Positions 55,776-61,607 of a DNA stretch of 64,000 bases are shown one piece after another. This DNA is from Brachybacterium aquaticum (GTDB lineage: Bacteria; Actinomycetota; Actinomycetes; Actinomycetales; Dermabacteraceae), in assembly GCF_014204755.1 (NCBI RefSeq), contig NZ_JACHLZ010000001.1, positions 1,240,001-1,304,000 of the forward strand, in the 5' to 3' direction. Position numbers and translations under genes: made by a program. Position 1 is the first letter of the stretch. Every line of letters begins with the position of its first letter. The notes under the pieces are model-generated. The model saw only the letters and a list, made by a program, of their open reading frames with translations, was not told the origin of the DNA and made no database searches.

Positions 55776-55824
55776 CTGCGGGCGCACTCAGCAAGCGTGA
55801 CCACTGAATCGCCTGTAAGTGTTC

Positions 55825-56045
55825 GTGGTGGCCGGCCCGGGGCTGGCTGGCAGGGTTGGTGCTGGTAGCCCGGCGCCCGTCGTGACTCCTGAATCGGCTG
55901 ACCCCTGCGGGGTGTCATTCCCGGGATCTGTCCGGCGGGGGCCGGGTGCCGGCGCCAGCCCTGGCCCACCACGATGGCTTGATCAGAAGCATGTCCACCG
56001 CCGGGAGCTCGATCTCGGCGGCGTGGCTCATTACAGGCCCGCCTC
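55825..56045 (+). ncRNA. Candidate IS110 bridge RNA, copy 1
   Basis: Two predicted folding domains lie upstream of the transposase. Domain 1 is closed by GTGGTGG (55825) with CCACCAC (55966) and GGGCTGG (55840) with CCAGCCC (55955). It holds CTGAATCG (55889-55896, same sense as the left target flank), a hairpin ACCCC-TGC-GGGGT (55901-55913), and CCCGGGAT (55920-55927, complement of the right target flank). Domain 2 holds AGAAGCAT (55985-55992, same sense as the element's right end), a stem CCACCGCCG/CGGCGGCGTGG, and TTACAGGC (56031-56038, complement of the element's left end). Order and sense agree with target-binding then donor-binding loops of known bridge RNAs. Exact ends are unknown. Confidence 0.65.
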
Positions 56046-56115
56046 GTAGTGACTCTCATCCTGGGCCGACGCCGGCAACGACGTCCCGTCCCAGCGATTC
56101 GAGAGGAACATCGTC

Positions 56116-57198
56116 ATGAACAGTCTGCCTGCCACCGTAGGGGACTTCTACCGATACGTCGTCGGAGTCGACACCCACGCCGCAACCCACTCCTACGCGA
56201 TCATCGAGGCTCCGAGCGGCGGCCTCATCGATCAGAATGTCTTCCCGACCAGCCCTGCAGGGCTGCGACGCGCACGAGAATGGATCGCGCGCCGCACCGA
56301 GGGAGACCTCGACGGTGTGCTGATCGCCGTGGAAGGAACCGGCTCTTACGGGGCAGTTCTCAGCGACGTGCTGCAGCAGGTCGGCTACCGAGTCGTCGAG
56401 GCACCGACCCCGCGTCGTGCACGAGCCCGAAGCAAGACCGACGCCCTCGACGCGCTACTCGCCGCCCGATCGAGTCTCGTCATGCCGTTGACGACGTTGC
56501 GAGATCGTCGCACCGGTGACCTGCAGTCGGCGCTCCAAGTCCTCACCGGTGCCCGCGACCAACAGAACGCCGACAGATTGCGGTGCATCAACGCCCTCAC
56601 CGCACTCGTGAGAACCCACGACCTTGGAATCGATGCACGCCGGGCCTTGACCGGAATGCAGATCGCGACGATCGCGAGCTGGCGTCGCCGAGAAGAGACG
56701 CTGGGGACAGCAACCGCCCGCGCCGAAGCGACACGCCTCGCGAAGCAGATCACGACGCTCGAGAGGGACCTCGCCGAGAACCGTGAACGGATCACTCACC
56801 TCGTGGAGACCACAGCTCCCGAGCTGCTGGACCTGCCAGGAGTCGGCGCAGTCACCGCAGCCGTGATCTTGACGGTCTGGTCGCACCCCGGCCGAATACG
56901 CAACGAGGCCGCATTCGCCATGATCGCAGGAGTCTGCCCGATCCCGGCCTCCTCGGGTAACACCACGAGGCATCGCCTCAACCGCGGTGGAGACCGACGG
57001 CTGAACCGCGCGCTGAACACCATCGTGCTCACCAGGATGCGCACCGATCCTGCCACCCGCACCTACATCGAGCGGCGCCAAAGCGAGGGCAAGACATCCA
57101 GAGAGATCCGACGCTGCCTCAAGCGCTACATCAGCCGCCAGATCTTCCGATCACTCACAGTTGCCCACCCCGTCCCGGACGCCGCCGCCGCGGCTTGA
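56116..57198 (+). CDS. IS110-family transposase (DEDD/Ser recombinase), copy 1
   Basis: A 360-residue recombinase. The RuvC-like N-terminal domain shows the DEDD residues in VVGVDTHAATHSYA, VEGTGSYG and KTDALDALLA; the C-terminal Tnp_20 domain shows LPGVGAVTAAVILTVW and the catalytic serine region PIPASSGNTTRHRLNRGG. Length is normal and no stop interrupts it, so the element looks active. GAGAGGA precedes ATG 56116. The copy at 60213-61295 differs at two residues (Ser/Asn near 35, Thr/Lys near 349). Confidence 0.93.
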   Translation: MNSLPATVGDFYRYVVGVDTHAATHSYAIIEAPSGGLIDQNVFPTSPAGLRRAREWIARRTEGDLDGVLIAVEGTGSYGAVLSDVLQQVGYRVVEAPTPRRARARSKTDALDALLAARSSLVMPLTTLRDRRTGDLQSALQVLTGARDQQNADRLRCINALTALVRTHDLGIDARRALTGMQIATIASWRRREETLGTATARAEATRLAKQITTLERDLAENRERITHLVETTAPELLDLPGVGAVTAAVILTVWSHPGRIRNEAAFAMIAGVCPIPASSGNTTRHRLNRGGDRRLNRALNTIVLTRMRTDPATRTYIERRQSEGKTSREIRRCLKRYISRQIFRSLTVAHPVPDAAAAA

Positions 57199-57258
57199 CA
57201 CAACATAGAAGCATCCCGGGTGTGGTGGAGGCTCTGAATCCACGGGAGGATGAGGAGC

Positions 57259-57521: not shown

Positions 57522-58755
57522 GGCGGATTCAAGCGGTCAGTGCAACGAGTCCTGTGAGATGAGGCAGTCACTGATCACAGGAGGATCCGGATGCAGGGCA
57601 GGCACGGTCATCTCAGCCGGGAGCAGAAGCAGCTCGGGCTCAGGCTGCACGGGAAGGGCTGGCGGCTGGTCGACATCGCGAAAGAGATCGGCTGCAGCGC
57701 GCCGATGGTCGGCATCATGGCCCGCACCGGCAGGCACCTTGACGCCAGGCCGTTCGGCTGGGAGCCACGGCAGGGCTGTCTGACGATCCACGAGCGCGAG
57801 CAGATCCTGCTGGGGATCAATCGTGGCGATACCTTCACCGCGATCGCCGAGCAGCTGGGGCGTGCGGTGTCGACCGTCAGCCGTGAGGTGTAGCGCGGCG
57901 GGGGTCGCTGCGGCTACTCGGCGTGGCGTGGTCATGAACGTGCCCGCGAGCAGGCGCGTCGACCGAAGCCGTTCAAGCTTGCGTCGGGCCGGCTGCTCGA
58001 GGAGGTCGCCAGCCGGCTGGAGCAACTGTGGTCACCTGAGGAGATCGCGGCGCGCCTACGGTTGGATCACGCCGACGACCCGGAGATGCGCGTGAGCCAC
58101 GAGACGATCTACCAGTCGCTGTTCGTGCAGGGCCGAGGCGAACTGCGCCGTGAGCTGGCGCGGTGCCTGCGGTCCGGAAGAGCGGCCCGCAAGCCCCGCC
58201 GAACCACGGACGGTCGCGGCCGCATCCCCGGCATGGTCATGCTCAGCGAACGCCCCGCAGAAGCCGACGACCGCGCCGTGCCAGGCCACTGGGAAGGTGA
58301 TCTCATCCTCGGCGAGGGCAGCCGCAGCGCCGTCGGCACGCTCGTTGAGCGCTCGACGCGAATGACACTGCTGCTGCACCTGCCCGACGGCAAGAGCGCC
58401 GAGCAGGTCGAGGCCGCGATGCGCGCCGCAATCAGCAAGCTGCCGCCCTCGTTGATCCGAACGATCACCTGGGACCAAGGCGCGGAGATGTCCAAGCACG
58501 CCGCGTTCACCATCGCCACAGGAATCCCGATCTACTTCTGCGATCCCCACTCGCCCTGGCAGCGGGGGAGCAACGAGAACACCAACGGCCTGCTGCGCCA
58601 GTACCTGCCCAAAGGCACCGACCTGAGCGTCGTCAGCCGCGAGAAGTTGGACGCGATCCAGGACAGCCTCAACGGACGCCCCCGCAAGACACTGGGCTAT
58701 CTGACACCATCAGAGAAGCTCGCAGAGTTCCTTGCGCCCACCGCTTGAATCCGCC
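57522..58755 (+). mobile_element. IS30-family element in IS3 orfA
   Basis: The 1,234-bp element has inverted ends starting GGCGGATTCAAGCGGT on both sides and is flanked by a 3-bp direct repeat GAT (57519-57521 and 58756-58758). Removing element and one GAT restores the IS3 orfA frame, which confirms the boundaries. Confidence 0.88.
57591..58748 (+). pseudogene. IS30-family transposase with an in-frame amber codon
   Basis: The frame encodes a normal 385-codon IS30 transposase: N-terminal helix-turn-helix (LSREQKQLGLRLHGKG, then IAEQLGRAVSTVSREV), and the DDE core VPGHWEGDLILG, TWDQGAEMSKH and SPWQRGSNENTNGLLRQYLP. Codon 101 is TAG (57891-57893), directly after SREV, and the frame continues without further stops to 58748. 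It is therefore a pseudogene by one nonsense change, unless the stop is read through. Confidence 0.88.
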
Positions 58756-58813
58756 GATCCTGAGGTCAGCCTCGGCTTTTTTCGCGGCGGAGCTCGACCG
58801 CCAACAGCGTTGA
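58756..58813 (+). pseudogene. IS3 orfA 3' end with -1 slippery site
   Basis: This is the displaced end of orfA (ILRSASAFFAAELDRQQR). The heptamer T TTT TTC at 58777-58783 has the X XXY YYZ form for -1 frameshifting and connects the orfA frame to the orfB frame, as expected for IS3 elements. Confidence 0.75.
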
Positions 58814-59316
58814 TCGTGGAGTACATCGACCAGTGCAGGCATGAGTTCGGCGCCTGGCCGGTCTGTCGAACGCTGACCGCAGCGGGCACGCAGATCGCGC
58901 CGAGCACGTACTACGCGTTCAAGACCCGCCCACCCTCGAAGCGAGCACTACGCGACGAGGAACCGCTGGTCGAGATCCACCGGGTCCATGCGGCGAACTT
59001 CGGCGTCTACGGGGCGAAGAAGGTCCACGCCCAGCTGCGCCGCGAGGGCGTCGTCATCGCGCGTTGCACGGTCGAGCGGCTCATGCGCGGCGCGGGGTTG
59101 CGAGGGATCAGCCGGGCCAAGGGCCCGCGCACCACGATCTCAGGTCGCGGCACCGATAATCGTCCTGACCTCGTCGAACGTGACTTCACCGCGACCGCTC
59201 CGAACCAGCTGGGTGTCGCTTATTGTACATCGCTACTCGAATCGTTCGCGAAGTACGTCGCGCCGTCGTTGGGGTGGAAGCCCAATACGGAGGGCCCCGT
59301 CGAGGGGTACACCGGC

Positions 59317-59322
59317 TAGGCT
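59317..59322 (+). promoter_or_regulatory. -10 box of the leaderless cargo gene
   Basis: TAGGCT is followed by 6 nt (GACCCT) and ATG 59329. Confidence 0.5.
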
Positions 59323-59328
59323 GACCCT

Positions 59329-59613
59329 ATGGGCGAAGTGCAGTTGACAGGCCGACTTGTTTGTCGAACGACCGAGGAGTCGAATCTTGTCAAGCGATTC
59401 TTGCATGATCACGTTTCACTTACTCGCTTAGAACCCGGGTGCCTATCGTTTGAGGTTACGCAGACCGACGACCCACTTGTTTGGCGAGTCGAAGAACGAT
59501 TCAATAGCGAGGCTGCTTTCGAATGTCATCAAGACCGCGTGGCGTCCAGCGAGTGGGGGCGGATGACCGCGGGGATCACACGCGACTATTCGATCGTCAA
59601 GCACACCGGATAG
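59329..59613 (+). CDS. Antibiotic-biosynthesis/quinol monooxygenase-type protein in IS3
   Basis: A 94-residue single ABM-domain protein (ferredoxin-like fold), as in YgiN quinol monooxygenases: VQLTGRLVCRTTEESNLVK, LTRLEPGCLSFEVTQTDDP, WRVEERFNSEAAFECHQ. It is complete and has its own -10 box, so it may be expressed despite lying inside an IS. Base use is far less GC-rich than its neighbours (near half by eye), which indicates transfer from elsewhere. A role in quinone or reactive-compound oxidation is family knowledge only. Confidence 0.78.
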   Translation: MGEVQLTGRLVCRTTEESNLVKRFLHDHVSLTRLEPGCLSFEVTQTDDPLVWRVEERFNSEAAFECHQDRVASSEWGRMTAGITRDYSIVKHTG

Positions 59614-59625
59614 AGGTTGCCTTGA

Positions 59626-60183
<558 letters not shown>

Positions 60184-60212
60184 TAACAAACCCGGGATGC
60201 TTCTATGTTGTG

Positions 60213-61295
60213 TCAAGCCGCGGCGGCGGCGTCCGGGACGGGGTGGGCAACTTTGAGTGATCGGAAGATCTGGCGGCTGATGTAGCGCTTGAGGCAGCGT
60301 CGGATCTCTCTGGATGTCTTGCCCTCGCTTTGGCGCCGCTCGATGTAGGTGCGGGTGGCAGGATCGGTGCGCATCCTGGTGAGCACGATGGTGTTCAGCG
60401 CGCGGTTCAGCCGTCGGTCTCCACCGCGGTTGAGGCGATGCCTCGTGGTGTTACCCGAGGAGGCCGGGATCGGGCAGACTCCTGCGATCATGGCGAATGC
60501 GGCCTCGTTGCGTATTCGGCCGGGGTGCGACCAGACCGTCAAGATCACGGCTGCGGTGACTGCGCCGACTCCTGGCAGGTCCAGCAGCTCGGGAGCTGTG
60601 GTCTCCACGAGGTGAGTGATCCGTTCACGGTTCTCGGCGAGGTCCCTCTCGAGCGTCGTGATCTGCTTCGCGAGGCGTGTCGCTTCGGCGCGGGCGGTTG
60701 CTGTCCCCAGCGTCTCTTCTCGGCGACGCCAGCTCGCGATCGTCGCGATCTGCATTCCGGTCAAGGCCCGGCGTGCATCGATTCCAAGGTCGTGGGTTCT
60801 CACGAGTGCGGTGAGGGCGTTGATGCACCGCAATCTGTCGGCGTTCTGTTGGTCGCGGGCACCGGTGAGGACTTGGAGCGCCGACTGCAGGTCACCGGTG
60901 CGACGATCTCGCAACGTCGTCAACGGCATGACGAGACTCGATCGGGCGGCGAGTAGCGCGTCGAGGGCGTCGGTCTTGCTTCGGGCTCGTGCACGACGCG
61001 GGGTCGGTGCCTCGACGACTCGGTAGCCGACCTGCTGCAGCACGTCGCTGAGAACTGCCCCGTAAGAGCCGGTTCCTTCCACGGCGATCAGCACACCGTC
61101 GAGGTCTCCCTCGGTGCGGCGCGCGATCCATTCTCGTGCGCGTCGCAGCCCTGCAGGGCTGGTCGGGAAGACATTCTGATCGATGAGGCCGCCGTTCGGA
61201 GCCTCGATGATCGCGTAGGAGTGGGTTGCGGCGTGGGTGTCGACTCCGACGACGTATCGGTAGAAGTCCCCTACGGTGGCAGGCAGACTGTTCAT
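60213..61295 (-). CDS. IS110-family transposase, copy 2
   Basis: A 360-residue IS110 recombinase, intact, with the same DEDD and serine motifs as copy 1; two amino-acid differences (Asn in EAPNGGLID and Lys in RSLKVAHP). It is transcribed toward the IS3 interior. Confidence 0.93.
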   Translation of the reverse strand: MNSLPATVGDFYRYVVGVDTHAATHSYAIIEAPNGGLIDQNVFPTSPAGLRRAREWIARRTEGDLDGVLIAVEGTGSYGAVLSDVLQQVGYRVVEAPTPRRARARSKTDALDALLAARSSLVMPLTTLRDRRTGDLQSALQVLTGARDQQNADRLRCINALTALVRTHDLGIDARRALTGMQIATIASWRRREETLGTATARAEATRLAKQITTLERDLAENRERITHLVETTAPELLDLPGVGAVTAAVILTVWSHPGRIRNEAAFAMIAGVCPIPASSGNTTRHRLNRGGDRRLNRALNTIVLTRMRTDPATRTYIERRQSEGKTSREIRRCLKRYISRQIFRSLKVAHPVPDAAAAA

Positions 61296-61365
61296 GACGA
61301 TGTTCCTCTCGAATCGCTGGGACGGGACGTCGTTGCCGGCGTCGGCCCAGGATGAGAGTCACTAC

Positions 61366-61586
61366 GAGGCGGGCCTGTAATGAGCCACGCCGCCGAGATC
61401 GAGCTCCCGGCGGTGGACATGCTTCTGATCAAGCCATCGTGGTGGGCCAGGGCTGGCGCCGGCACCCGGCCCCCGCCGGACAGATCCCGGGAATGACACC
61501 CCGCAGGGGTCAGCCGATTCAGGAGTCACGACGGGCGCCGGGCTACCAGCACCAACCCTGCCAGCCAGCCCCGGGCCGGCCACCAC
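61366..61586 (-). ncRNA. Candidate IS110 bridge RNA, copy 2
   Basis: This is the same non-coding left-end sequence as copy 1 in reverse. The 76-codon frame across the region translates identically in both copies, so the guide segments are the same. Confidence 0.6.
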
Positions 61587-61607
61587 GAACACTTACAGGC
61601 GATTCAG

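What the first reader, a model, noticed from the sequence alone, without database searches (positions are those of the whole stretch)
55825..56045. Candidate bridge RNA of an IS110 element with all four guide segments matched to its target and ends
Seen: in the non-coding left end of the IS110 copy, CTGAATCG (55889) equals the left target flank, CCCGGGAT (55920) is the complement of the right target flank, AGAAGCAT (55985) equals the element's right end at 57207-57214, and TTACAGGC (56031) is the complement of the left end at 55811-55818. Target guides flank one hairpin (ACCCC-TGC-GGGGT); donor guides flank another (CCACCGCCG with CGGCGGCGTGG). Known: IS110-group elements such as IS621 carry a bridge RNA with a target loop then a donor loop, left guides in sense and right guides in antisense. 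Inference: this element has the same system, with AT as apparent crossover dinucleotide instead of the CT of IS621. I found the matches by eye, so chance is not formally excluded.
Basis: partly seen in the sequence, partly recalled or inferred. Interest (0 to 1): 0.92.

Follow-up and report, generated by a model that had tools for sequence, protein, structure and literature searches.

The report
IS110 bridge RNA targeting IS3 ends
A jumping gene in this bacterium carries a two-loop guide RNA that steers it into the ends of another kind of jumping gene; relatives with different guides sit in matching different sites, and the crossover shares one C rather than the AT first proposed.

Summary
The bridge-RNA reading is strongly supported. 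Across 16 lineages, a blind scan of every left-end column against target and donor positions recovers exactly these guides; permutation tests are reached in at most 2 of 100,000 cases. The left ends share a two-loop fold; 31 of 51 pairs show compensatory change. One part is wrong: AT is not the crossover. Empty sites show the element sits 8 bp inside the terminal repeat of IS3-family elements (TGAATCGn|C|CCGGG). Base 55812 is target-derived, and both junctions share a single C (55813, 57215). The extra 'AT' after CCCGGG and 'GC' after TTACAG are handshake guides as in IS621, and they covary too. The target base after the C is free in this clade (17 C, 11 A, 4 G, 2 T in 34 sites), so the overlap looks like one base, not IS621's CT. 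Several lineages target other mobile elements' transposase genes or ends. Mechanism known, member new, one-base overlap a probable variant.

The parts
55813..57214 (+). IS110-group element, 1402 bp, CTGTAAG...AGAAGCAT; 4 near-identical copies in the genome
   Evidence: copies compared; ends fixed by empty target sites
55805..55812 (+). left part of the target, TGAATCGC (first 8 bp of an IS3-family terminal repeat); base 55812 is target-derived
   Evidence: empty sites TGAATCG[C/G]CCC[G/A]GG; 55812 is G in the copy that sits in the IS3 type with TGAATCGG
57215..57230 (+). right part of the target, CCCGGGTGTGGTGGAG, rest of the same IS3 terminal repeat
   Evidence: matches free IS3 ends from CCCGGG on but not the AT before it
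55813..55813 (+). shared crossover base C, left junction (second copy at 57215)
   Evidence: only base common to both junctions and the empty site (same geometry in an independent lineage)
55853..56055 (+). predicted bridge RNA: target-binding stem-loop then donor-binding stem-loop (outer limits approximate)
   Evidence: consensus fold of 17 left ends, 51 pairs, 31 with changes on both sides, 0/500 shuffles as good
55889..55897 (+). left target guide CTGAATCGG (followed by CU at 55898-55899)
   Evidence: sense match to left flank; columns 55890-55897 covary with target positions -8..-1
55920..55925 (+). right target guide CCCGGG, pairs with the target from the shared C rightwards
   Evidence: antisense match; columns 55920-55924 covary with target +5..+1
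55926..55927 (+). handshake guide AU, pairs with donor T7 and A6 (57214, 57213)
   Evidence: column 55927 matches donor position 6 in 16/16 lineages of the blind scan, expected 6.7
55985..55992 (+). left donor guide AGAAGCAU, matches the right end 57207-57214
   Evidence: donor base 5 matched in 16/16 lineages; donor base 6 not matched across lineages (2/16)
56031..56036 (+). right donor guide UUACAG, pairs with 55813-55818 (CTGTAA)
   Evidence: 96/96 pairs in 16 lineages including variants CTGTGA, CTGCAA, CTGTCA
56037..56038 (+). handshake guide GC, pairs with target C7 and G6 (55812, 55811)
   Evidence: 13/16 lineages at each position, expected 4.9 and 3.9
56116..57198 (+). IS110-group recombinase, 360 aa (DEDD_Tnp_IS110 + Transposase_20)
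   Evidence: Pfam; IS621 is the best solved match, E 4e-8
57195..57200 (+). TTGACA, candidate -35 box that overlaps the stop codon and would be joined to the left end in the circle
   Evidence: TTGAC in 38 of 39 right ends, 13-17 bp from the junction
60197..61598 (-). second copy of the same element, in the other terminal repeat of the same IS3 element

Best explanation
The left end of this IS110-group element encodes a bridge RNA. One internal loop pairs with both strands of the target, here the terminal inverted repeat of IS3-family elements. The second loop pairs with both strands of the element's own joined ends (the circle: AGAAGCAT-C-TGTAAG). The recombinase brings the two together and exchanges strands at one shared C. 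After exchange the two right guides also pair through their handshake nucleotides (AU, GC) with the newly joined DNA. Shown here by sequence: guides, handshake guides, fold, target, junctions, covariation. Inferred from IS621: RNA expression, binding to the recombinase, the circular intermediate and the strand chemistry.
For: Four exact guide matches. Four copies in one genome and more in sister species sit at [T]GAATCGn|C|C; seven of the eight close copies whose right flank is known lie in IS3-family ends, and uninterrupted IS3 ends serve as empty sites. Guide-flank covariation over 16 lineages: left target guide 96/128 matches against 38 expected, right target guide 70/80 against 25, donor base 5 16/16, right donor guide 96/96, handshake bases 15/16, 13/16 and 13/16; each reached by at most 2 of 100,000 permutations. 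A blind scan of 10,795 column pairs ranks the same columns first. Conserved two-loop fold with compensatory changes. Layout, guide polarity and handshake pairing as in IS621 (PMC11208160, PMC11208158).
Against: No transcript or protein data. Guide registers were first set by eye and by anchor motifs before the blind test. Some lineages match poorly (L069 left guide 3/9 in the fixed register; L042 left flank lacks CGn; the right end of L062 does not fit). The 16 lineages are related, so permutations overstate significance somewhat. Rfam lists no family at this place.
Confidence: 0.94

Rival explanations
1. Bridge RNA as above, but with an ordinary two-base CT core; positions that differ between target and donor are heteroduplex and always resolve the same way through repair or replication bias.
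For: The donor reads T-CT-GTRAG and most left target guides end in CU or UU; IS621 strands are cut with a stagger and mismatch repair was proposed (PMC11208158).
Against: All 34 distinct sites keep target base 7 and donor base 9 at the left junction, and donor base 7 and target base 9 at the right one; no mixed outcome was seen. Both right guides go straight from the C pair to the handshake pairs, one base shorter than described for IS621.
Confidence: 0.25
2. The repeated segments are DNA binding sites for the recombinase at ends and target, not RNA guides.
For: Direct and inverted copies of end sequence in a left end are also expected of protein binding sites.
Against: Guides change together with unrelated targets while stems covary as RNA helices; guide strand and order follow the IS621 scheme.
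Confidence: 0.02
3. The four matches are chance.
For: 8-mers found by eye in GC-rich DNA.
Against: 0 of 20,000 shuffles held two of them; the same columns match in 16 lineages.
Confidence: 0.005

Closest known systems
IS621 bridge RNA and recombinase (IS110 group), PMC11208160 and PMC11208158
   Same: RNA in the left end upstream of the gene; target loop then donor loop; left guides sense, right guides antisense; handshake guides after both right guides; -35-like box in the right end; DEDD/Tnp recombinase
   Different: Recombinase only distantly similar (E 4e-8); target and donor share one C instead of CT; target is the terminal repeat of IS3-family elements instead of REP sequences; right target guide is 6-7 nt; donor base 6 is read by the handshake guide, not by the left donor guide
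IS4321/IS5075 (IS1111 group), which insert in Tn21 terminal repeats (Partridge and Hall 2003, cited in PMC11187229)
   Same: An IS110-family element that specifically enters the terminal inverted repeat of another mobile element
   Different: IS1111 type with subterminal inverted repeats and RNA in the right end (per PMC11208160 and PMC11187229); here RNA in the left end and an IS3-family host element
ISEc21 seekRNA (IS110 type), PMC11187229
   Same: Upstream non-coding RNA needed for movement, insertion without target duplication
   Different: Different element and target; donor-loop and handshake pairing were not described in the passages I read

Membership tests
IS110 group with bridge RNA | DEDD recombinase with C-terminal Transposase_20 domain | tested here: met
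   Pfam PF01548 and PF02371 above cut-off; VEGTG, KTDALDA and the SGNTT serine region align with the IS621 regions of E60, D102/D105 and S241
IS110 group with bridge RNA | long non-coding left end upstream of the gene, short right end | tested here: met
   303 bp before the gene, 16 bp after the stop codon
IS110 group with bridge RNA | conserved RNA with two internal loops | tested here: met
   17-sequence consensus with pair covariation
IS110 group with bridge RNA | loop segments covary with target and donor on both strands | tested here: met
IS110 group with bridge RNA | RNA expressed, bound by the recombinase and needed for recombination | not testable with these tools
   needs small-RNA sequencing and an in vitro assay
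IS110 group with bridge RNA | circular intermediate with a promoter formed at the joined ends | tested here: inconclusive
   TTGAC in 38/39 right ends at near-fixed spacing; -10 box weak, circle not observed
IS621-type core | CT dinucleotide shared by target and donor | tested here: not met
   target base after C is C/A/G in 32 of 34 sites; empty sites share one C with the donor
IS1111 group | RNA in the right end and subterminal inverted repeats | tested here: not met
   right end of 16 bp; RNA in the left end

The most novel reading that the evidence does not exclude
An actinobacterial clade of IS110-group elements recombines at a single shared C, with the strand-exchange point directly next to the handshake guides. 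Its guides have been naturally re-aimed several times, often at conserved motifs of other transposable elements (IS3 terminal repeats, the SYDN and WYN codons of rve-type transposases, the TEAING motif of ISL3 transposases).
Probability: 0.65. Interest if true: 0.6.

Novelty: new variant of a known kind. Interest (0 to 1): 0.55.

Why it matters
It gives independent, base-level comparative support for handshake pairing. It also offers a compact family of bridge recombinases from high-GC bacteria whose target seems to need only one fixed base, where IS621 prefers CT. If the one-base overlap is confirmed in vitro, these enzymes would put fewer limits on which DNA sites can be addressed. The natural targets also show bridge RNAs repeatedly re-aimed at other mobile elements.

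Tried and rejected
The AT crossover was rejected by empty sites. One DNA alignment with a wrong second reference was useless. The single-protein scan of genome contigs returned one truncated relative, Brachybacterium nesterenkovii, so relatives came from the genome search instead. The class-level search added few lineages. For lineage D no uninterrupted target copy was found. A lookup of an arbitrary accession failed. Papers on IS110 in Brachybacterium or on IS3 ends as IS110 targets: nothing directly on point in the titles and abstracts returned. I did not build a covariance model, because the fold and guide tests already agreed.

Full report
WHAT IS THERE. The window (genus probably Brachybacterium: the nearest named contig is B. 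nesterenkovii) carries an IS110-group element whose recombinase is at 56116-57198. Shuffles of the left end that keep dinucleotides contained two of the four in 0 of 20,000 trials.

COPIES AND EMPTY SITES. The genome holds four copies that differ by one or two bases. Their flanks read: ACCACTGAATCGC|..|CCCGGGTGTGGTGG; CTACCTGAATCGC|..|CCCGGGTTTGTTAG; GATGCTGAATCGC|..|CCCGGGTTTGTTAG; AAATGTGAATCGG|..|CCCAGGTTTGATGC. Searches with the right flanks found many uninterrupted IS3-family ends. These read TGAATCGCCCCGGGTCTGG, TGAATCGCCCCGGGTTTGTTAG and TGAATCGGCCCAGGTTTGATGCC. The element therefore sits between positions 8 and 9 of the IS3 terminal repeat. The base before CTGTAAG (55812) is C in copies that hit the first two IS3 types and G in the copy that hit the third, so it comes from the target. 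Target and element share one base only, a C (55813 and 57215). The three free sites in the genome with no mismatch to TGAATCGNCCNRGG lie at IS3 ends found.

BOTH ENDS OCCUPIED. In the window the IS3 element between 57215 and 60196 has an inward-facing IS110 copy in each terminal repeat (55813-57214 plus; 60197-61598 minus). A pair of inward-facing copies about 1.3 kb apart also occurs in two other genomes, G020 (around an IS3 element) and G534.

RELATIVES WITH OTHER GUIDES. Searches of genus, family, order and class gave relatives of 38-93% protein identity. Multi-copy families fixed their ends: left end C-TGTRAG, right end ATAG[A/G]AGnnT, target C between. Guides were read at fixed offsets from conserved motifs (GTGACTC before the left target guide, TGTCC after the right one). 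Examples: L065 flank AGTTCGCTC, guide AGTTCGCTC; L048 flank CGGGTAGAA, guide CGGGTAGAA; L074 right flank CAATGAC, complement of guide GTCATTG.

STATISTICS. Over 16 lineages, own-pair matches against permuted pairs were: left target guide 96/128 (mean 38.2); right target guide, positions 9-13, 70/80 (mean 25.0); handshake to donor base 6 15/16 (6.3); handshake to target bases 7 and 6 13/16 (4.9) and 13/16 (3.9); left donor guide base 5 16/16 (6.5); right donor guide 96/96 (82.3). Each was reached by 0 to 2 of 100,000 permutations. Donor base 6 is not matched by the left donor guide (2/16). Registers were fixed by the anchors, so lineages with a one-base shift (L017, L063, L019) count against me. 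A blind scan of 10,795 column pairs, with 16 lineages, ranked the same columns first: 55890-55897 sense, 55920-55924 antisense, 55927 to donor base 6, 56037-56038 to target bases 7 and 6, 55990 to donor base 5 (self-matches of the left end aside). Relatedness of lineages makes these numbers optimistic, but the targets themselves are unrelated in sequence.

FOLD. A 17-sequence alignment gives a long outer stem, a hairpin between the two target guides, and a second stem-loop with a hairpin between the two donor guides. 92.2% of cells are paired; 31 pairs have changes on both sides; no shuffle or slid version comes near. The guides lie in the two internal loops.

MECHANISM. By the IS621 structures, left guides pair with the bottom strand, right guides with the top strand, and handshake guides pair with the exchanged strand (PMC11208160, PMC11208158). 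Here the right target guide CCCGGG is followed by AU, which pairs with donor T7 and A6. The right donor guide UUACAG is followed by GC, which pairs with target C7 and G6. In IS621 two core bases (CT) separate handshake and outer pairing; here one C does. I number that C as position 8. In 34 distinct sites the target base after the C is C 17, A 11, G 4, T 2. In an independent lineage, three uninterrupted ISL3 copies align without a gap to flanks joined over one C. I infer that strand exchange takes place next to this C. A two-base core with consistently biased repair is not excluded.

PROMOTER. TTGAC overlaps the recombinase stop codon region in 38 of 39 right ends and lies 13-17 bp from the junction, as expected if the circle rebuilds a promoter. 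The -10 side is weak.

TARGETS OF RELATIVES. Reconstituted targets include an ISL3 transposase (TEA|INGR), rve-type transposases ([23 protein letters not shown]) and an IS3-type reading frame (KR|FYPLV). One lineage sits in a palindromic repeat (L067). REP palindromes and Tn21 ends are known IS110-family targets (PMC1525189, PMC11187229).

VERDICT. Ordinary in kind, since most IS110s are predicted to carry such RNAs (PMC11208160), but very clean, with the crossover corrected and a probable one-base overlap that differs from the published CT core. I found no report of this in the papers I could search; subscription papers were mostly not available.

Noticed in passing
window 55813-57214 (+) and 60197-61598 (-): Both terminal repeats of one IS3-family element carry inward-facing copies of the IS110 element, which should break both IS3 ends; similar pairs in loci L174 (G020) and L173 (G534).
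   Followed up: partly
window 57530-58760: The IS3 element's first gene is interrupted by an IS30-like transposase region (rve domain).
   Followed up: no
window 59213-59652: The second IS3 gene is split by about 430 bp that carry a 94-aa ORF with an antibiotic biosynthesis monooxygenase (ABM) domain; a possible passenger gene inside the IS3 element.
   Followed up: partly
window 58774-58902: Rfam ALIL pseudoknot (frameshift signal of IS3-family elements), consistent with the IS3 identification.
   Followed up: no
L100, about positions 1385-1430: An IS3-like end reads CTGAAGCATCCCGGG: it looks like a scar left by deletion of an IS110 copy through the short repeat GAA (CTGAA / TAGAAGCAT).
   Followed up: no
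L067, L075, L080, L081, L082 (G166): An IS110 relative sits at the centre of a long palindromic repeat (CTGACGGCGGCCCAG...CTGGGCCGCCGTCAG) at five places, like REP-targeting IS621.
   Followed up: partly
L068 and L069: Two nearly identical elements in the same kind of target differ at the bases after the right donor guide (GTA and TTC), the handshake site; only TTC fits the target.
   Followed up: no
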